A stretch of 41,897 bases of DNA from Brachyspira pilosicoli (lineage in GTDB: Bacteria > Spirochaetota > Brachyspiria > Brachyspirales > Brachyspiraceae), in the NCBI RefSeq assembly GCF_008016535.1, contig NZ_SAXY01000018.1, positions 1 to 41,897 on the forward strand, in the 5' to 3' direction. Positions 26,246 to 35,274 of the stretch are shown here, piece by piece. The position numbers and the translations under genes were made by a program. Each line of letters begins with the position of its first letter. The first letter of the stretch is position 1. The notes under the pieces are model-generated. The model ran no database searches. It was given only the letters and a program-made list of their open reading frames with translations, and was not told where the DNA came from.

Positions 26246-26430
26246 ATGCAGTTCTTCGCGAAGCGTATCCGAAGGATATTAGGTTCTTTTATACCAATAT
26301 CGAAGGCACTTCCTACGGTCGTAAAAGAACTGCGGAGGCTAGTCCCCACAAATAAAAAACTAAAAATTTTATTGTTCTTTTTTCCGCAGCTACACTCTGT
26401 GGACTTCGTCAAAGAACCAAAAAGGGCAAG
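26243..26430. repeat. Composite dispersed repeat, copy 2
   Basis: It begins with GCAGTTCTT, then GGTTCTTTTATACCAATATC and GGCACTTCC-TACGGTCGTAAAAGAAC (26282-26330), all close to copy 1 at 17513-17620 read in reverse. A 25-base segment after GCAGTTCTT is absent from copy 1. The second module (26374-26426) forms a hairpin: GTTCTTT/AAAGAAC outer and CCGCAG/CTGTGG inner arms. GCAGTTCTT also pairs with AAGAACTGC at 26325-26333. Confidence 0.65.
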
Positions 26431-26550
26431 TGTTTTAACTTTATATGCATTATAAATATATAAAATAATATCTATGTTTTTAGCTAAAAAATACTAAGTA
26501 TATGCTAAAAATATTGAATTTTTACAAAACAAGTAATATTAAAAAAACTC

Positions 26551-27342
26551 TTACATATTCTCTTCTATATATTTTCTTAGTTTATATAATGCCACTAATA
26601 CATTTTTTCTGTTAATATTATTTTTAGTTGAAAATAAAACTTTAATGTCATTAATCTCAGAAAGTTCAATATAATTTTCAGATGCAATTTTGTCGTATAA
26701 ATAAGATAAAATATTTAATATTGCTTCATCATAGTTTTTAAACTTAAAATATTCATTAGGTACATTCCATATTAAAGCTTCAATGATTTCATAATTAAAC
26801 TCATTTAACCCTTTTATCTCACCATTGAAACTTTGAAATATGTATTTAAATATTCTAATTAAATTGATAAAATTGTCTTTACATTCATATTCTTTTTTAT
26901 CAAAATTCTTATTGTCTAATTTAGGATAATATATATTATTTTCGCCATTAGAAGAAGTAATTAAAGCTGCTTCTATCTTGTTGTTCTCTTCTTCAATTTT
27001 GAAACTTGGTCTTAATATAATCTTTTCTTTATCATAATCAATAATAATGGAATCTAATATATCATTATATTCTATATTTTCTTTTTCTAATATCTTTGAA
27101 ATATCTTTTTTAAAATTTCTAGTATCTTTAGCATTATTTTTATTATCATCAATTAAAAATAAATTAAGATACTCCATATAACTAACATTGGTATTATTTC
27201 TTTTAGCCCCAGTAGCAACTATAGAAACATTACCATTATTTATAATGTTAGCCACAAAATCTAAAGCTTTATCAATTTTATATCTTGGATAAATAGTAGT
27301 ATTTCCAACTAATTTATTTATATAATCATATATATCATTCAT
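26551..27342 (-). CDS. Unrecognised protein, possibly a catalytically dead nucleotidyltransferase fold
   Basis: This 263-residue cytoplasmic protein is the last gene of the chemotaxis operon, five bases after cheB. No family name is certain. Its layout resembles CD-NTase-like nucleotidyltransferases: a helix, then IVATGAKRNNTNV (residues 41-53) at the GS-x-x-R-x-T position and YLNLFL (58-63) at the DxD(L)F position. IILRPSF (107-113) lies at the third-acid D-x-VPxF position, and a helical half follows with IRIFKYIFQSFNGEIKGLN and NYEIIEALIWNVP. The expected aspartates appear as Y58, N60 and I108, so catalysis is unlikely. An alternative is a novel chemotaxis accessory protein with only chance similarity. 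Confidence 0.45.
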   Translation of the reverse strand: MNDIYDYINKLVGNTTIYPRYKIDKALDFVANIINNGNVSIVATGAKRNNTNVSYMEYLNLFLIDDNKNNAKDTRNFKKDISKILEKENIEYNDILDSIIIDYDKEKIILRPSFKIEEENNKIEAALITSSNGENNIYYPKLDNKNFDKKEYECKDNFINLIRIFKYIFQSFNGEIKGLNEFNYEIIEALIWNVPNEYFKFKNYDEAILNILSYLYDKIASENYIELSEINDIKVLFSTKNNINRKNVLVALYKLRKYIEENM

Positions 27343-27347
27343 AATTT

Positions 27348-28481
27348 TTATGCTTTTTTAAGAGCAGCAGCTAATATTCTATCAAGCGGAAGTATCTCAT
27401 CTACACCGCCTCTGGCAATAGCCTCTCTTGGCATACCAAAAACAGTACAAGTTTCTTCATTTTGAGCAATATTATAAGCACCGGCATCTTTCATTTCTTT
27501 CATACCATTAGCCCCATCATCACCCATTCCAGTAAGTATGATACCTATAGCCTTATTTTTAGCATATACAGCACCGCTTCTAAAAAGTACATCTACAGAA
27601 GGTTTATGTCTAGTAACAGGTTCACCATCTACAACTTCAATATAATACTTTCCATTTTTAACTTTTATCATAGTATGCTTTCCGCCCCTTGCAAGTACTG
27701 CCTGTCCGCGTCCTATACTCATACCATCTTCAGACTCAAAAACTTCTATTTTTAACACAGTATTTAATCTTCTGGCAAAAGAAGTAGTAAAATGTTCAGG
27801 CATATGCTGAGCTATTACTATAGGAGGAGCAGAAGGAGTAACATTTTTTAAGCATTCTATCAAAGCCTCAGTACCGCCAGTGGAAGAGCCTATAAGTATA
27901 ATTTTGTCCATTGCAACTTCTCTAGAAGGTACAAGCGGAAGTATAATATCAGCATTATTTTTTGGATAAACTTTAAACCCAGAGGTTTTAGGAGCTTCTA
28001 CAGCAACTCTAGTATGAGTAATATTGCTGGCAGTTTCTGTAGGCATAGCAACACCATGTTTTTTATAAAACTTAGCTCTGTTGTTGTAAGCATTTTTTAT
28101 TTTTTCAACTAAATCTGTAGCTAATTCCTCAACACCGCCTCTTACATTAGCAGAAGGCTTAATAACATAATCAAAAGCACCAATATTTAAAGCATCTAAT
28201 GCTAACTCTCTGTGTTTATCAAGCAAAGAACTAAACATTATTACAGGAATAGGATTATTAATCATAAGTTTTTTAAGATAAGTAATACCGTCCATTTCAG
28301 GCATTTCTATATCCAAAGTAATAATATCAGGTTTTATAGTTTTTAATTTAGCCTCTGCAAGTATAGGGTTAGCAGCAGTAGCAGCCATCTCCAAATCAGG
28401 ATCAGAATTAACAATTTTTGTAAGCAGCTGCCTTATTAATGCACTATCATCAATTGATAAAACTTTAATTTTATTAGCCAT
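27348..28481 (-). CDS. cheB: Chemotaxis protein-glutamate methylesterase CheB
   Basis: This 377-residue enzyme removes methyl groups from, and may deamidate, receptor glutamates. The receiver domain (1-125) has D11/D12, phospho-site D57 (TLDIEMPEMDG) and the conserved lysine in YVIKPSA. After a linker, the esterase domain (about 190-377) shows S200 in IGSSTGGTEA, H226 in AQHMPEH and the aspartate pair 321-322 in TGMGDDGANGM. The length is slightly above the E. coli enzyme because of a longer linker. It follows cheD. Confidence 0.95.
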   Translation of the reverse strand: MANKIKVLSIDDSALIRQLLTKIVNSDPDLEMAATAANPILAEAKLKTIKPDIITLDIEMPEMDGITYLKKLMINNPIPVIMFSSLLDKHRELALDALNIGAFDYVIKPSANVRGGVEELATDLVEKIKNAYNNRAKFYKKHGVAMPTETASNITHTRVAVEAPKTSGFKVYPKNNADIILPLVPSREVAMDKIILIGSSTGGTEALIECLKNVTPSAPPIVIAQHMPEHFTTSFARRLNTVLKIEVFESEDGMSIGRGQAVLARGGKHTMIKVKNGKYYIEVVDGEPVTRHKPSVDVLFRSGAVYAKNKAIGIILTGMGDDGANGMKEMKDAGAYNIAQNEETCTVFGMPREAIARGGVDEILPLDRILAAALKKA

Positions 28482-28511: not shown

Positions 28512-29105
28512 TTAAAATAATGTAATATCAGATTTCTCTTCAATTTTTTGTTGCAAGTTTTTAGAATACTTAATTTCTTGTTCAGCAGAGAACTCTTTAG
28601 TTTTACCTTCAATCTTTTTCATAAGCACTCTATTTTCTGTATTGAAAAAAAATACTTTTCTAGGCCAAGAACCCCCAACATCCTCACTAATAATAGGAAT
28701 ATTTTCATCAGCTAAAAATTTTCTAGCGAATTTAATATTTTTATCTGGCACTTGAAGTACATTACTAGTCATACCTGTTAAAACATGCCCTCCTCCAAAT
28801 ATCTTAGCAGTAAGATTAGCCTTTTTACCTCCAAGTTTAATTATTTCGTTTATTAGCACCTCCATAGCATAAAGCCCATACCTAGTATAATTATAATCAT
28901 CTTCCGGATTCTCCCATTCTTTCATCTCTGGGAGCATAAAGTGATTCATCCCACCGAACTTCAAATTATTCTCAAATAAACAAACCGAAATACAACTTCC
29001 TAAAACTGTTTTTATTACCGCAGGCTGTCTAGAGGCATAATAACCGCCTATATATATAGTGATTCTTTTAAAATTGCTGTTAGCAGCAGATGGAAAATCT
29101 AACAT
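28512..29105 (-). CDS. cheD: Chemoreceptor glutamine deamidase CheD
   Basis: This 197-residue enzyme has the CheD motifs TVLGSCISVCLF (catalytic C38), GGMNHFMLP (H55) and AKIFGGGHVLTGM. It deamidates receptor glutamines and, in Bacillus, binds CheC. The C-terminal 35 residues extend past the usual CheD core and end IEEKSDITLF, almost the same as the end of the receptor-like first protein of the operon. It lies 17 bases after cheR. Confidence 0.93.
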   Translation of the reverse strand: MLDFPSAANSNFKRITIYIGGYYASRQPAVIKTVLGSCISVCLFENNLKFGGMNHFMLPEMKEWENPEDDYNYTRYGLYAMEVLINEIIKLGGKKANLTAKIFGGGHVLTGMTSNVLQVPDKNIKFARKFLADENIPIISEDVGGSWPRKVFFFNTENRVLMKKIEGKTKEFSAEQEIKYSKNLQQKIEEKSDITLF

Positions 29106-29122: not shown

Positions 29123-29968
29123 TTAAATCTTTTTATAGATATTGCTAGAAATATATTTAAATAAATCTGAAATTCCAAATAAAGTTTCAGAATGCCCTAT
29201 AAACACATAACTATCATCTTTCATATATCTATAAAATTTATTAAATAATTCTTTTTGAAACTCTTTATCAAAATAAATTATTACATTTCTGCAAAATATT
29301 AAATCAAACTTAGTATGTATATCAAAATCTTCATCTTTAAAATTGAGCTGTCTAAACGATATACATTTTTGCAAAATATTTTTTACTTTATAAAGTCCTG
29401 CATTATTTCCAGTGCCTTTAAGAAAATATTTTTTTAAAGTACTAGTTTGAATAGTTTCTACTGTTTCTTCTTTATATATACCTGCATAAGCATGAGCAAG
29501 TACATTCGTATCTATATCACTTGCTAAAATTTTTATATCATAATTTTTGAATCTCTCTCCAAAATAATCATGAAGCGTTATAGCAATAGTATAAGGCTCC
29601 TCACCTGTAGAACAAGCAGCAGACCATATTCTTAAATTATTAACCTTTCCTTCTTTATAGCTTTTTTCCCAATTTGGAAGAAAAGTAGTTTTCATATATT
29701 CAAAATGTTTATTTTCTCTAAAGAAATCGGTTTTATTTGTAGTAACAGCATTGATAAAATTGGTAACCTCTTCATCAGGAGCACCTTTCAAATATTCTAT
29801 ATATTCTCTAAAAGAAGACATATTTAAAGCCCTAATTCTTTTAGTTATTCTAGAAGTAACTAAAGCTCTTTTATGTTCAGACATTTGTATACGAGTTTTA
29901 TCATAAATAATTCTCACTAATTCATTAAACTCACTGTCTGTTAAAGGTGCAAGATTCAATTCACTCAT
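29123..29968 (-). CDS. cheR: Chemotaxis protein methyltransferase CheR
   Basis: This 281-residue enzyme methylates receptor glutamates using SAM. It has the N-terminal CheR helical domain with VTTNKTDFFRE (about 75-85), and a SAM-binding domain with WSAACSTGEEPYTIAI (115-130) and FDLIFCRNVIIYFD. Length and motifs are standard. It lies 10 bases after cheW. Confidence 0.95.
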   Translation of the reverse strand: MSELNLAPLTDSEFNELVRIIYDKTRIQMSEHKRALVTSRITKRIRALNMSSFREYIEYLKGAPDEEVTNFINAVTTNKTDFFRENKHFEYMKTTFLPNWEKSYKEGKVNNLRIWSAACSTGEEPYTIAITLHDYFGERFKNYDIKILASDIDTNVLAHAYAGIYKEETVETIQTSTLKKYFLKGTGNNAGLYKVKNILQKCISFRQLNFKDEDFDIHTKFDLIFCRNVIIYFDKEFQKELFNKFYRYMKDDSYVFIGHSETLFGISDLFKYISSNIYKKI

Positions 29969-29978
29969 ATAAAAAACC

Positions 29979-30512
29979 TCAAACTATGGTCTTATTTATA
30001 TCATCATTAGATTTTACTATATCCTCTATAGGAAGAACCATAATAATCTTATTTTCAAGTCTAATAACATTAGATATCTGCAAACCGCTAACATTAGCAA
30101 TAGGGGTAGCTGTCATCTGACTTTCATAAACAGTAATAACATCAGAAACCATATCGGCAAGTATGCCAAATCTTCTGTTAGAAGTAGATATTACTATAAT
30201 AACATCATTTTCTATAGAACGGTCATCTCTTCTTTCAAGCCCAAAACGCATTCTTATATCAACTATATGCAGAATATTACCTCTCAAATTAATAAGCCCT
30301 CTCATATATTTAGGACTTCCAGGCACAGGAGTAATGGTAGTAACCCCAACTATACCCTCTATACTTAGCACATCAAGAGCATATTCTTCGTTGTCTATCT
30401 TAAAAACAAGAAATTGCTGACTTGGCTCTGCGGAAGCATTCTCTTCTGCACCTATACCCACACCGCCAATCTGTGCTATTTCACTAGCATTAATTTTTTG
30501 ATTATCCAACAT
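29979..30512 (-). CDS. cheW: Chemotaxis coupling protein CheW
   Basis: This 177-residue adaptor joins receptors to CheA. The CheW fold spans about residues 30-165, with QFLVFKIDNEEYALDV, PVPGSPKYMRGLINLRGNIL and GILADMVSDVI. About 30 residues of alanine/glycine-rich N-terminal extension precede it. It lies 14 bases after cheA. Confidence 0.95.
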   Translation of the reverse strand: MLDNQKINASEIAQIGGVGIGAEENASAEPSQQFLVFKIDNEEYALDVLSIEGIVGVTTITPVPGSPKYMRGLINLRGNILHIVDIRMRFGLERRDDRSIENDVIIVISTSNRRFGILADMVSDVITVYESQMTATPIANVSGLQISNVIRLENKIIMVLPIEDIVKSNDDINKTIV

Positions 30513-30526
30513 ATTAAAATCCTTTA

Positions 30527-32635
30527 TTATTTAACGCCATTATTAACTTTATTTTGTAAAGATATATTAACAAGTCCCTGTATATCTATAATGAGAGCTA
30601 TTCTACCATCTCCAAGTATAGTACCTCCAGCAATTCCTGCATGCTTGCTGAAAGCAGAATCCAAAGACTTAATAACAACCTGCTGCTGATCGAGTAGCTC
30701 ATCTACAAATATAGCACATTTTCTATATCCTGCCTCAACAACTACAACAATACCATCATCTATCTCATTAACCTGAGTGTCTATCTCAAATACCTTGTGA
30801 AGTCTTATGAGAGGTAAATATTCATCTCTGATTTTTATCATCTCACCTTTACCCTCAAAAGGCTTAACTTGGTCGCTTTTAATTTTTATCTGCTCTATGA
30901 TAGATATTAAAGGCATTACATAAATCTGCTCGCCTATAGCAAAAGTAATACCTTCGATAATAGCCAAAGTTAAAGGAAGTTTAATAATAAATGTGCTTCC
31001 AACTCCCTCAGCACTCTTTATCTCAATCTTTCCTTTCATCTTTTCAACATTAGCCCTAACAACGTCCATACCAACACCCCTTCCAGATATGTCAGTAACT
31101 TTTTCTGCTGTTGATAAACCTGGGCTAAATATTGTTCTATATATTTCAGCATCAGAGTAATTTCCGTCTTTTGATAATAAGCCTTTCTCAACAGCTTTAT
31201 TAAATATCTTTTCTTTATTTAAACCATTACCATCATCAGACACCTCTATAACAACATGCCCTTCTTGGTGAGCTGCTGACATTGTAATAGTGCCATATTC
31301 AGGCTTTCCTCTTGCAATTCTCTCTTCTTTAGTTTTTTCTATACCATGGTCCATAGAGTTTCTAATAATATGTTTAAGAGGGTCAGATAATTGCTCTAAC
31401 ATATTTTTATCTATCTCTGTAGTTTCACCTTTAAGAACTAATTTTACTTCTTTGTTTAATTCTAAGTTAAGGTCTCTAACATACCTATGGAATTGTGTGA
31501 ATATAGGGCCTATAGGCATCATCCTTATGTTCATAACCTCTTCTTGTATTTGTCTTGAGGTTCTGTCCATAGAACTAACTGCTTCTTTTAAGCCATTATC
31601 TATGTCTAAGTTTTGTGTTAGCTGCATTATTCTTGATTGTGCTATAACAAGCTCTCCAATCAAGTTCATTAAGCTGTCTAATTTTCTTATATCAACCCTT
31701 ACAGTAGAAGGAGCTTGTACTTTAGTTCCAGCAGGTTTAGCAGCTGCTTTATTTTCTTTAGCTTTATCATCATGAACTTCTTCTTTTTTCTCTTCTTCTT
31801 CATGTTTTTCTTCGGACTTCTCTTCAACTTTTTCTTCTGCCTTTTCTTCAGCAGGCTTAACTTCCTCTTCTTTCTCTTCTACTTTCTCAGTAATATTAAT
31901 ATCATTATCATCTATAACAAATAAAAATATATTTTGAACTTGCTCTATAGTAGAAGAAGTTTCAACATCTAATGAAAATTGAGTGTAACAAGCATAAGGA
32001 TCTTCTAAATCTGATATAGCAGGCAAATTACTAATATCTATTTTTAAATTACTAATAGTACCTATAGCCTTAAGGTCATTTAAAAACATAAGAGGGTCTA
32101 TACCATTATCAAAAATACTAGGTTTAAATATCATTTCAATATGAAACATATTGTTTGAAGAAGATGCCTTACTCTCTTCTTTAGGTTTTTCTTCTGCTTT
32201 AGGTGCTTCTTCCTTTTTTTCTACAGATACAGTGCTTATATCATTACCTTCAGCTATAGCTTTTATTTTAGCTTTTAAGCTTTCTATATTTGTAACACCA
32301 TCTGCTTCTCCAACACCATCTACTATATTTTGAAGCATCAGTTTTACAGTGTCCAAGAACTCTAATAGAACTGTAATCATTTGCGGTGTAACATCCAATT
32401 TACCGCTTCTTACCTTTTCTAATAAGTTTTCTGCAACGTGGTTTAACTCACTCATTGTAGTAAACCCAACAGTACCAGCAGAAGATTTTAAAGTATGGGC
32501 ACTTCTAAATATTTTATTTAAAAGGTCTTCATCACTTTTATTATCTTCAAGTAAAACTAAATCATTTTCTAGTCCCTCAACTATCTCATTAGCCTCACTC
32601 AAAAATATCGAAATAAATTCATCACTATCAAACAT
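30527..32635 (-). CDS. cheA: Chemotaxis histidine kinase CheA
   Basis: This 702-residue kinase has an HPt domain with phospho-acceptor H47 (SAHTLKSSAG), a P2-like ferredoxin-fold domain (about 165-255) and then a strongly charged linker of Glu/Lys repeats (about 260-300). The P3 dimer helices (DIRKLDSLMNLIGELVIAQS), the ATPase domain (N box HIIRNSMDHGIE, G1 DDGNGL, G2 DISGRGVGMDVV) and a C-terminal CheW-like P5 domain follow. All catalytic elements are intact. It phosphorylates the CheY and CheB encoded in the same operon. Confidence 0.95.
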   Translation of the reverse strand: MFDSDEFISIFLSEANEIVEGLENDLVLLEDNKSDEDLLNKIFRSAHTLKSSAGTVGFTTMSELNHVAENLLEKVRSGKLDVTPQMITVLLEFLDTVKLMLQNIVDGVGEADGVTNIESLKAKIKAIAEGNDISTVSVEKKEEAPKAEEKPKEESKASSSNNMFHIEMIFKPSIFDNGIDPLMFLNDLKAIGTISNLKIDISNLPAISDLEDPYACYTQFSLDVETSSTIEQVQNIFLFVIDDNDINITEKVEEKEEEVKPAEEKAEEKVEEKSEEKHEEEEKKEEVHDDKAKENKAAAKPAGTKVQAPSTVRVDIRKLDSLMNLIGELVIAQSRIMQLTQNLDIDNGLKEAVSSMDRTSRQIQEEVMNIRMMPIGPIFTQFHRYVRDLNLELNKEVKLVLKGETTEIDKNMLEQLSDPLKHIIRNSMDHGIEKTKEERIARGKPEYGTITMSAAHQEGHVVIEVSDDGNGLNKEKIFNKAVEKGLLSKDGNYSDAEIYRTIFSPGLSTAEKVTDISGRGVGMDVVRANVEKMKGKIEIKSAEGVGSTFIIKLPLTLAIIEGITFAIGEQIYVMPLISIIEQIKIKSDQVKPFEGKGEMIKIRDEYLPLIRLHKVFEIDTQVNEIDDGIVVVVEAGYRKCAIFVDELLDQQQVVIKSLDSAFSKHAGIAGGTILGDGRIALIIDIQGLVNISLQNKVNNGVK

Positions 32636-32680: not shown

Positions 32681-33049
32681 TTAATTTAAAAAACGTTTAA
32701 CAACATCTAAAAGCTGTGTAGGATTGAAAGGTTTTACTAACCAACCGCTAGCTCCTGCTGCCTTACCTTCCATCTTCTTATCATCTTGAGATTCTGTTGT
32801 AAGCATAAGTATAGGAGTATATTTATACTTATCAAACTTTCTAACATTCTTAATAAACTCTATACCATCCATTTTAGGCATATTCAAATCTGTAATTATC
32901 ATATCAATATTTGCAGCCTTATTTACAGCTTCTAATCCAGTAGTGCCATCATCAGCAGAAATTACCTCATAACTCCCCTTCTTCAAAGTATACTCAACAG
33001 ATGCCCTAGCAGTATTTGAATCGTCTACTATTAGTATTGTTTTAGCCAT
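32681..33049 (-). CDS. cheY: Chemotaxis response regulator CheY
   Basis: This 122-residue single-domain receiver has the acid pocket D9/D10, phospho-site D54 (ITDLNMPKMDG), a conserved T in LMLTTES and K in WLVKPF. It carries the CheA signal to the flagellar switch. It sits between the STAS gene and cheA, 45 bases upstream of the latter. Confidence 0.93.
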   Translation of the reverse strand: MAKTILIVDDSNTARASVEYTLKKGSYEVISADDGTTGLEAVNKAANIDMIITDLNMPKMDGIEFIKNVRKFDKYKYTPILMLTTESQDDKKMEGKAAGASGWLVKPFNPTQLLDVVKRFLN

Positions 33050-33348: not shown

Positions 33349-35274
33349 CTAAAATAATGTAAAATCTCCACTATCCGAACCCTCTTCTATGTTAATATCG
33401 ACATTTAATACCTCATCTCCAGATAAAATACTGTTCGCTATAGTTCGCTCTTTCTTTATAGTATAATAATTTACTATTTCAATATATTTATCACTTTCTA
33501 TCTTCCAATTCTCTATATTTAAAGTCTTATAATATTCATTTTTCTTGTTTCTGATAATATCACGCATCTTATTAAATACTTCCATTATCTCATTAATCTT
33601 TGTTAAAAGAGTGGTTAAAGAGCTTAAGTCTATTAAGGTCTTTTCTATTAAATTAAACAACTCTTTAGCATGCATATCTAAACCTTTAATATTATCTTCT
33701 ATAATAGTTTTAGACTCTTCCAAACGTTTATAAATATTACCCATCATAGATTCTATATATAAATTTTCTATAGATTGCTGATTAATATTAAATTTAAACT
33801 TATTGATAGCATTAAATATTGTAGTCTTTATATTTTCAAATTTCTCTAAACAAACATCTACAGTATCTGTAATATTTGTAGCTATAGATTCTACACTAAC
33901 CATAGAAAATGTTTGAGAATCGCTGAATATATTACTATTCTTCTCTAATTCTATTTTAGCTAAAAAGTTAATAGAGTTAAATGCCTTAGCAATATTTTTT
34001 GTCTCTAAAAACATATTTTCAAGTCCTTCTATAGAATCTATTATACCTGCATTATTATCTGATATTCTATGCTTATTGCTTAAAAACAATTTAAAATTAT
34101 CTAAATAAAGTTTAATAAAACCTAAATATTCATTAAATATAGAATCTGATACACTAAAAGGAAACTCTGATTTGCCTGATTGGACTCCTATCATGTATTC
34201 AACTATTGTGTTTCTATCTGATGATATATCAAGCAAACTTTCTTTAAGTCCTTTTAAACTATCATTTATGCGAGCATTATTATCTAAAATCTCTTTATGT
34301 ATTGATTTAAAATTTTCTATTATTAAACTCAAAACCACATCATCAAAAGTAAGCAAATCCAACAATTTATGTTCCAAAGACTCATTGTTTTCCAATTCTG
34401 CCGCATTATTTATAGCAACTACTTCCTTTCCATAAACATCTATAAACTTTCTATTCTCTTCTACAATATGTTTTATAGACTCTATTATATGTTCTGTTTG
34501 CTGCCTAATAATATCTTCTTGCGGAAGTATCATCATCACTTCAAATATATAATCATAGCTATTATCTACTCTTGATACTATATCAGAAATCATATTAGAA
34601 AAAGTAGCAAAAGAATTAACCATATTATTATGCTCTTTATCTAATTGCTCTCTCATTATATTAAAGCTTCTTCTTTGCATCTCATTAGTTTTTAATATCT
34701 CATCTTTAAACTTATCAAACTGTACAAATAATTCCTGTCCTATTCTATTCATCTGGTCAGCTTGTTCGTTAGAAGTTTCTGACATTTTTATGATGTTTTT
34801 TGATATCTCTCCAAAAGCCTTACCGCCTGAACCATATTTTGAAGCTATGATAATAGCATTAAGTGAATAAACTTTTATCTGATCTGCTAATTTTCTTATC
34901 TCTTCTATAGAATCCATTACATTACTAATAATATTAACATCTTCAATAATAGAATTTGATAAAACATCATCTTGATTAATTAATGTTTGCATTCTATCAA
35001 AAGACTTAAAAAAATCTTCTTGGTTTTCTTGGAAGTCGCTAGAAAAGTTTTTTTCAGTATCTTTTTCTGTAAAATAGCTTAAAAGAGATATTGATTTCTC
35101 ATTTTCATTTTTCATTTCTTGTTCTATTAGTGGAAATTTCTCTCCTATAAAGCTATAAACTCTTCCGAATTCTGTTAAGAAATTTTGTATATCTTTTACA
35201 GTAGCTTCTAAAATTGCAGAATAATCAAGAATATTCTCATTAACATTACCATAAACTGTAGTGCTATCTAACAC
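33349..35274 (-). CDS. Soluble receptor-like coiled-coil protein with divergent MCP signalling hairpin
   Basis: This 641-residue protein is almost entirely helical and has no membrane span or signal peptide. Residues 123-175 align with the receptor hairpin tip: EIRKLADQIKVYSLNAI, then IASKYGSGGKAFGEISKNI, against the canonical [33 protein letters not shown]. The tip is altered, with III for AIE and no Glu of the EAARAGE type. More coiled coil follows, and the C-terminus is EEGSDSGDFTLF. The start is GTG 35274 with GAGG upstream. It opens the che operon, behind a strong promoter, so it is probably an array component or cytoplasmic signal input. Confidence 0.65.
   Translation of the reverse strand: MLDSTTVYGNVNENILDYSAILEATVKDIQNFLTEFGRVYSFIGEKFPLIEQEMKNENEKSISLLSYFTEKDTEKNFSSDFQENQEDFFKSFDRMQTLINQDDVLSNSIIEDVNIISNVMDSIEEIRKLADQIKVYSLNAIIIASKYGSGGKAFGEISKNIIKMSETSNEQADQMNRIGQELFVQFDKFKDEILKTNEMQRRSFNIMREQLDKEHNNMVNSFATFSNMISDIVSRVDNSYDYIFEVMMILPQEDIIRQQTEHIIESIKHIVEENRKFIDVYGKEVVAINNAAELENNESLEHKLLDLLTFDDVVLSLIIENFKSIHKEILDNNARINDSLKGLKESLLDISSDRNTIVEYMIGVQSGKSEFPFSVSDSIFNEYLGFIKLYLDNFKLFLSNKHRISDNNAGIIDSIEGLENMFLETKNIAKAFNSINFLAKIELEKNSNIFSDSQTFSMVSVESIATNITDTVDVCLEKFENIKTTIFNAINKFKFNINQQSIENLYIESMMGNIYKRLEESKTIIEDNIKGLDMHAKELFNLIEKTLIDLSSLTTLLTKINEIMEVFNKMRDIIRNKKNEYYKTLNIENWKIESDKYIEIVNYYTIKKERTIANSILSGDEVLNVDINIEEGSDSGDFTLF

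What the first reader, a model, noticed from the sequence alone, without database searches (positions are those of the whole stretch)
26551..27342. Possible dead nucleotidyltransferase as the last gene of the chemotaxis operon
The protein has the order of segments of a CD-NTase-like nucleotidyltransferase, but Y58, N60 and I108 replace the three metal-binding aspartates and the GS motif is changed to TGAKRNNT. A non-catalytic nucleotide- or RNA-binding fold tied to chemotaxis would be new to me. It lies five bases after cheB, so it is almost certainly co-expressed.
Basis: inference. Interest (0 to 1): 0.6.

Follow-up and report, generated by a model that had tools for sequence, protein, structure and literature searches.

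The report
Dead CdnE cyclase after spirochaete cheB
The last gene of the chemotaxis operon in Brachyspira spirochaetes descends from a bacterial antiviral signal-making enzyme (a CdnE cyclase); its metal-binding residues are gone, but selection has kept it beside cheB across the genus, so it probably now works as a non-catalytic partner of the chemotaxis machinery.

Summary
Observation confirmed. The 263-aa ORF (26551-27342, minus strand) starts 5 nt after cheB. It is a diverged clade E CD-NTase (CdnE, the cyclase of CBASS): profile hits to LpCdnE (3e-13) and EfCdnE (1e-10); PADLOC cyclase models match all 24 orthologues; the AlphaFold model's best PDB match is LpCdnE-UTP-Mg (E 1e-10, TM 0.74). 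No orthologue restores them. Only the S of the GS motif varies.

Orthologues sit 1-8 nt after cheB in 23 of 26 Brachyspira genomes. A sister genus has a CdnE-like gene in the same slot with a different, less complete loss (P, D, N) and intact base-recognition residues. dN/dS is about 0.05-0.24 between close species, so it is not a decaying relic, though it evolves several times faster than cheB. Three Brachyspira genomes and a related genus lack it, so it is not essential to the che system. No Cap15 effector or active SMODS cyclase passes the cut-off in the family.

Most likely it is an exapted pseudoenzyme acting as a non-catalytic binding or adaptor protein in CheB/CheD/CheR adaptation. Descent, loss of catalysis and constraint are shown; the chemotaxis role is inferred from position.

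The parts
26551..27342 (-). dead CdnE-like protein, 263 aa, last gene of the che operon
27190..27210 (-). remnant of NTase motif 1, residues 45-51 (GAKRNNT; GSKRNRT in other species)
   Evidence: alignment with active CdnEs QGSYRNNTN
27163..27180 (-). residues 55-60 YMEYLN in place of xxSDxD: Y58 and N60 replace the first two metal aspartates
   Evidence: LpCdnE D65/D67 in PMC10442399
27007..27027 (-). residues 106-112 EKIILRP: I109 replaces the third metal aspartate (LpCdnE D139)
26890..26928 (-). residues 139-151 YPKLDNKNFDKKE, equivalent of the lid region over the CdnE active site; the most conserved stretch of the Brachyspira family
26629..26661 (-). residues 228-238 SEINDIKVLFS, second conserved stretch, equivalent of LpCdnE TEINEIKYLFG next to lid 3
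27348..28481 (-). cheB, 377 aa (receiver + methylesterase)
   Evidence: Pfam
28512..29105 (-). cheD
   Evidence: Pfam
29123..29968 (-). cheR
   Evidence: Pfam
29979..30512 (-). cheW
   Evidence: Pfam
30527..32635 (-). cheA
   Evidence: Pfam
32681..33049 (-). cheY-like receiver, 122 aa
   Evidence: sequence (DDSNTARAS...); not run against Pfam
33349..35274 (-). soluble receptor-like protein, 641 aa, first gene of the cluster

Best explanation
The gene is a CdnE-type CD-NTase that entered the position behind cheB before Brachyspira split from a sister genus, lost its catalytic metals and was kept as a pseudoenzyme. Made together with CheB (and CheD, CheR) from the operon, the protein most likely works as a non-catalytic binding or adaptor protein that touches the adaptation enzymes or the receptor array through its re-modelled former active-site cleft, possibly gated by a ligand there. 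Shown: descent, fold, loss of all three metal ligands in Brachyspira, linkage to cheB, purifying selection. Inferred: co-expression (from 1-8 nt gaps), action in chemotaxis (from position), the adaptor mechanism and its surface (from where conservation lies).
For: CdnE descent. Metal ligands lost: Y58 24/24, N60 23/24 (S once), residue 109 only V/I/A/M/L, against SD[VI]D in all nine active CdnE or CD-NTase proteins compared. Constraint: dN/dS 0.05-0.24 in close pairs, median 0.21; dN/dS 0.07 even for the pair that includes the frameshifted copy. Conserved linkage: 1-8 nt after cheB in every Brachyspira orthologue with cheB on the contig; same slot, 10 nt gap, in the sister genus. Segments around the old active site are more often invariant than the rest (48% vs 29% of columns within 4 residues of CdnE ligand contacts; 7 of 262 circular shifts reach this), although the contact residues themselves are not (35% vs 36%): the cleft region seems kept for a new purpose rather than for its old ligands. 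No Cap15 effector over the cut-off and no SMODS domain over the cut-off in the family, so no CBASS partner was seen.
Against: Nothing measures function. Three Brachyspira genomes and two genomes of another genus lack the gene while keeping the che operon, so chemotaxis works without it. It evolves several times faster than cheB (cheB dN/dS 0.01-0.04), more than a core che component would. No coevolution or interaction data. The window-size choice was not corrected for several tries.
Confidence: 0.5

Rival explanations
1. It still works in defence: a non-catalytic remnant that senses phage or binds a nucleotide signal, and its place behind cheB only supplies expression.
For: Parent family is the cyclase of CBASS; faster evolution than cheB and patchy loss are usual for defence genes.
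Against: No effector neighbour or Cap15 in the family; vertical inheritance in one fixed slot instead of mobile defence islands.
Confidence: 0.15
2. A nucleotide sensor: it binds an NTP or cyclic dinucleotide without turning it over and passes the signal to CheB or CheD, as a PilZ adaptor (MapZ) does for CheR1 in Pseudomonas. A special case of the main explanation.
For: The sister-genus protein keeps the second aspartate (the Mg-B/triphosphate ligand in LpCdnE), lid-1 Asn, the SY pair and the QxW motif (residues from PMC10442399). K166, the equivalent of the donor phosphate Lys201, is invariant in Brachyspira. MapZ precedent: PMC7288161.
Against: In Brachyspira the acceptor-base Gln and lid-1 Asn, the donor stacking Tyr, the lid-3 Trp and all metal ligands are lost.
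Confidence: 0.17
3. A pseudogene or hitch-hiker: a decaying CBASS cyclase read through from cheB, without function.
For: Lost in several lineages; one species carries a one-base shift near codon 24.
Against: Open frame in 22 of 23 genomes that have it, low dN/dS over the genus, invariant motifs at the altered site.
Confidence: 0.08
4. Still a catalyst with other acids (for example E57, D/N52 or E106).
For: E57 and E106 are invariant.
Against: E57 is one residue out of register in a beta strand, so its side chain should point away from the Y58/N60 side; no acid stands in for two of the three metal ligands.
Confidence: 0.04

Closest known systems
Clade E CD-NTases (CdnE: LpCdnE, EfCdnE, ClCdnE, EmCdnE, RmCdnE) of type I CBASS
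   Same: Fold over the whole chain, NTase core plus C-terminal helical domain; motif-1 pattern G(S/A)xRNxT; YP...N...K lid stretch; E-A/C-L-hydrophobic-W/Y-N-x-P helix; (S/T)EIN(D/E)IK.LF block
   Different: No metal aspartates; lid-1 Asn, stacking Tyr and lid-3 (R/Q)xW gone; about 40 residues shorter; no effector gene; fixed behind cheB
Dead or non-catalytic NTase-fold proteins of eukaryotes: MAB21L1, OASL, NF45-NF90, MiD51
   Same: Same principle: cGAS/OAS-type fold with no detected catalytic activity, reused for binding or scaffolding (MAB21L1: PMC4897736; OASL PMC4446440 and NF45-NF90 PMC11952958 from the listing; MiD51 from memory)
   Different: Eukaryotic; separate origins; no link to chemotaxis
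MapZ (PilZ adaptor of Pseudomonas aeruginosa)
   Same: A nucleotide-messenger protein acting on a chemotaxis adaptation enzyme (CheR1, with c-di-GMP; PMC7288161)
   Different: Unrelated fold; ligand and partner known there, unknown here

Membership tests
CD-NTase clade E (CdnE) | Sequence and fold homology over the chain | tested here: met
CD-NTase clade E (CdnE) | hG[G/S] motif | tested here: inconclusive
   G45 invariant; second residue A in 12 and S in 12 of 24 rows
CD-NTase clade E (CdnE) | [D/E]h[D/E] metal pair | tested here: not met
   Y58, N60
CD-NTase clade E (CdnE) | Third acidic metal ligand (LpCdnE D139) | tested here: not met
   residue 109 V/I/A/M/L
CD-NTase clade E (CdnE) | Lid-1 Asn for uracil; (R/Q)xW lid 3 in pyrimidine enzymes | tested here: not met
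   residue 138 F/Y/D; residues 241/243 N and I/L/M; both kept in the sister-genus protein
CD-NTase clade E (CdnE) | Makes cyclic dinucleotides | not testable with these tools
   needs an assay; residues predict no
CBASS defence system | Effector gene (Cap15 or other) beside the cyclase | tested here: not met
   neighbours are cheB and unlinked genes; Cap15 model has no hit over cut-off in 29 genomes; other effector types not searched
CBASS defence system | Curated NCBIfam cyclase cut-off | tested here: not met
   best 24.8 bits against cut-off 350; note that RmCdnE itself scores 287.5, also below
Chemotaxis operon component | Conserved gene order with che genes | tested here: met
   behind cheB in all Brachyspira orthologues and the sister genus
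Chemotaxis operon component | Needed for chemotaxis | not testable with these tools
   absent from 5 of 29 family genomes that keep cheB

The most novel reading that the evidence does not exclude
A phage-defence cyclase was captured by a bacterial chemotaxis operon, lost catalysis, and became a receptor for a nucleotide or cyclic-nucleotide signal that tunes CheB/CheD adaptation; the sister-genus protein, which keeps base and phosphate contacts without two of the three metal ligands, would be the intermediate state.
Probability: 0.15. Interest if true: 0.85.

Novelty: new variant of a known kind. Interest (0 to 1): 0.58.

Why it matters
Dead cGAS/OAS-type NTases are known from animals; the papers searched here hold no bacterial CD-NTase pseudoenzyme and no CBASS report for Brachyspira. 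A vertically inherited one fixed in a chemotaxis operon would show a defence enzyme turned into a housekeeping signalling part. It also gives a partly degenerate relative in a sister genus to compare with. Defence-system finders (PADLOC models) score these genes as cyclases, so they may wrongly count as CBASS in Brachyspira.

Tried and rejected
Pfam finds no domain over cut-off in the protein; its HMA_2 hit (E 0.005, 17 bits against cut-off 30) is treated as chance. PF18144 SMODS does not reach these genes at all, so Pfam alone would have hidden the homology. Tested whether the gene travels with the receptor-like first gene: no, that gene is also in genomes without the NTase. Looked for remnants behind cheB in the genomes that lack it: none. 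Searched phages (no match) and plasmids (weak hits only) for a closer relative: none. The literature has no hit for BHWA1_00494, the presumed B. hyodysenteriae locus tag; the Brachyspira genome papers list the che cluster without this gene. The che-gene tree is from CheB alone and is weakly supported, so the number of losses is uncertain.

Full report
What was checked. The ORF at 26551-27342 on the minus strand is real: 263 codons, ATG start, 5 nt after the stop of cheB. cheB, cheD, cheR, cheW and cheA are confirmed by Pfam; a CheY-like receiver and a soluble 641-aa receptor-like gene lie at the front of the same strand run. The window is from Brachyspira: the closest named orthologue is that of B. 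pilosicoli T010 (87% identity).

Family. Pfam gives nothing over cut-off. A profile of 24 orthologues (A1) finds clade E CD-NTases in the PDB: LpCdnE 3e-13, EfCdnE 1e-10, EmCdnE 4e-7. PADLOC oligonucleotide-cyclase models match every orthologue. Profile-profile comparison with active plasmid-borne CdnEs (plus the sister-genus protein) gives 95% probability, E 3e-8. AlphaFold models have moderate confidence (mean pLDDT 71.7 and 73.5). Foldseek ranks CdnE structures first for both; the better model reaches TM 0.74 with LpCdnE-UTP-Mg.

Catalytic residues. In LpCdnE the metals are held by D65, D67 and D139; Q51 and N173 read the acceptor base; S53, N59, K201 and S220 hold the donor phosphates; Y221 and W276 stack on the donor base (PMC10442399). 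In Brachyspira the equivalents are Y58 (24 of 24 rows), N60 (23 of 24), residue 109 V/I/A/M/L, T/S44, residue 138 F/Y/D, A/S46, N/D52, K166 (invariant), residue 184 mostly P or Y, residue 185 variable and residue 243 I/L/M. Nine active CdnE or CD-NTase proteins compared all show SD[VI]D or GDVD at the metal pair. The GS motif is nearly intact: GSKRNRT in half of the rows.

Distribution. Orthologues occur in 23 of 26 Brachyspira genomes. The gap to cheB is 1-8 nt wherever measured. One genome of a sister genus (G027) has a CdnE-like gene 10 nt behind cheB, cut by a contig end; its last 59 residues lie at the start of another contig. Joining the two as one gene is an inference from the matching ends. 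In that protein the metal positions read P, D, N, while lid-1 Asn, the SY pair and QxW are kept. Brachyspira and G027 group against the other CD-NTases (ultrafast bootstrap 96, FastTree 0.89, long branches). Among 345 spirochaete genomes the cyclase model hits only 25 (E up to 1e-6), and 24 of these are this gene; the other is a CD-NTase with intact aspartates beside restriction-modification genes. The gene is missing behind cheB in three Brachyspira genomes and in two genomes of another genus, without remnants.

Selection. Pairwise dN/dS (Nei-Gojobori) is 0.055-0.242 for pairs with dS 0.1-0.4, median 0.21 over 274 pairs; for comparable pairs cheB gives 0.008-0.041. The gene is constrained but looser than cheB. 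One species has a one-base shift in a poly-A run near codon 24; a sequencing error or slippage cannot be told apart here.

Where conservation lies. The strongest stretches are 139-151 (the equivalent of the CdnE lid) and 226-238, then 45-59. Positions equivalent to CdnE ligand contacts are no more conserved than the rest (35% vs 36% invariant), but the segments within 4 residues of them are (48% vs 29%; 7 of 262 circular shifts as high; four widths tried). I read this as a cleft kept for a different use. That is an inference from sequence, since no coordinates could be analysed.

Mechanism. The most likely reading is a non-catalytic adaptor or binder made with CheB, CheD and CheR. Position, constraint and the re-modelled cleft support it; nothing shows the partner. 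The sensor variant has a precedent in MapZ-CheR1 (PMC7288161), and dead NTases as binding proteins have one in MAB21L1 (PMC4897736). A defence role is possible, but no effector was found (Cap15 only).

Verdict. The novelty lies in the combination (a bacterial CD-NTase pseudoenzyme fixed in a chemotaxis operon), not in the fold.

Noticed in passing
26300-26436: Intergenic sequence behind the dead CdnE gene belongs to a dispersed repeat with about 50 similar pieces in the same genome (most 78-92% identity, search stopped at its limit); a terminator-like hairpin lies inside it at 26330-26351.
   Followed up: partly
33349-35274: Soluble 641-aa receptor-like protein at the head of the che cluster, in 28 of 29 family genomes; only weak similarity to the Borrelia BB0569 chemotaxis family (E 4e-4, far below cut-off).
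   Followed up: partly
L098:191-784: In the sister genus the CdnE-like gene is followed after 8 nt by a 197-aa gene whose C-terminal half looks like an Smr domain (by eye); this neighbour is not behind the gene in the window.
   Followed up: no
L109 (Methanosphaera plasmid NZ_CP118754.1, 101800-102150): CdnE-like stretch only partly covered by a small hypothetical ORF, perhaps a decaying cyclase on an archaeal plasmid.
   Followed up: no
L023 (G013): One-base shift in a poly-A run near codon 24 of the orthologue; slippage, phase variation or sequencing error.
   Followed up: partly
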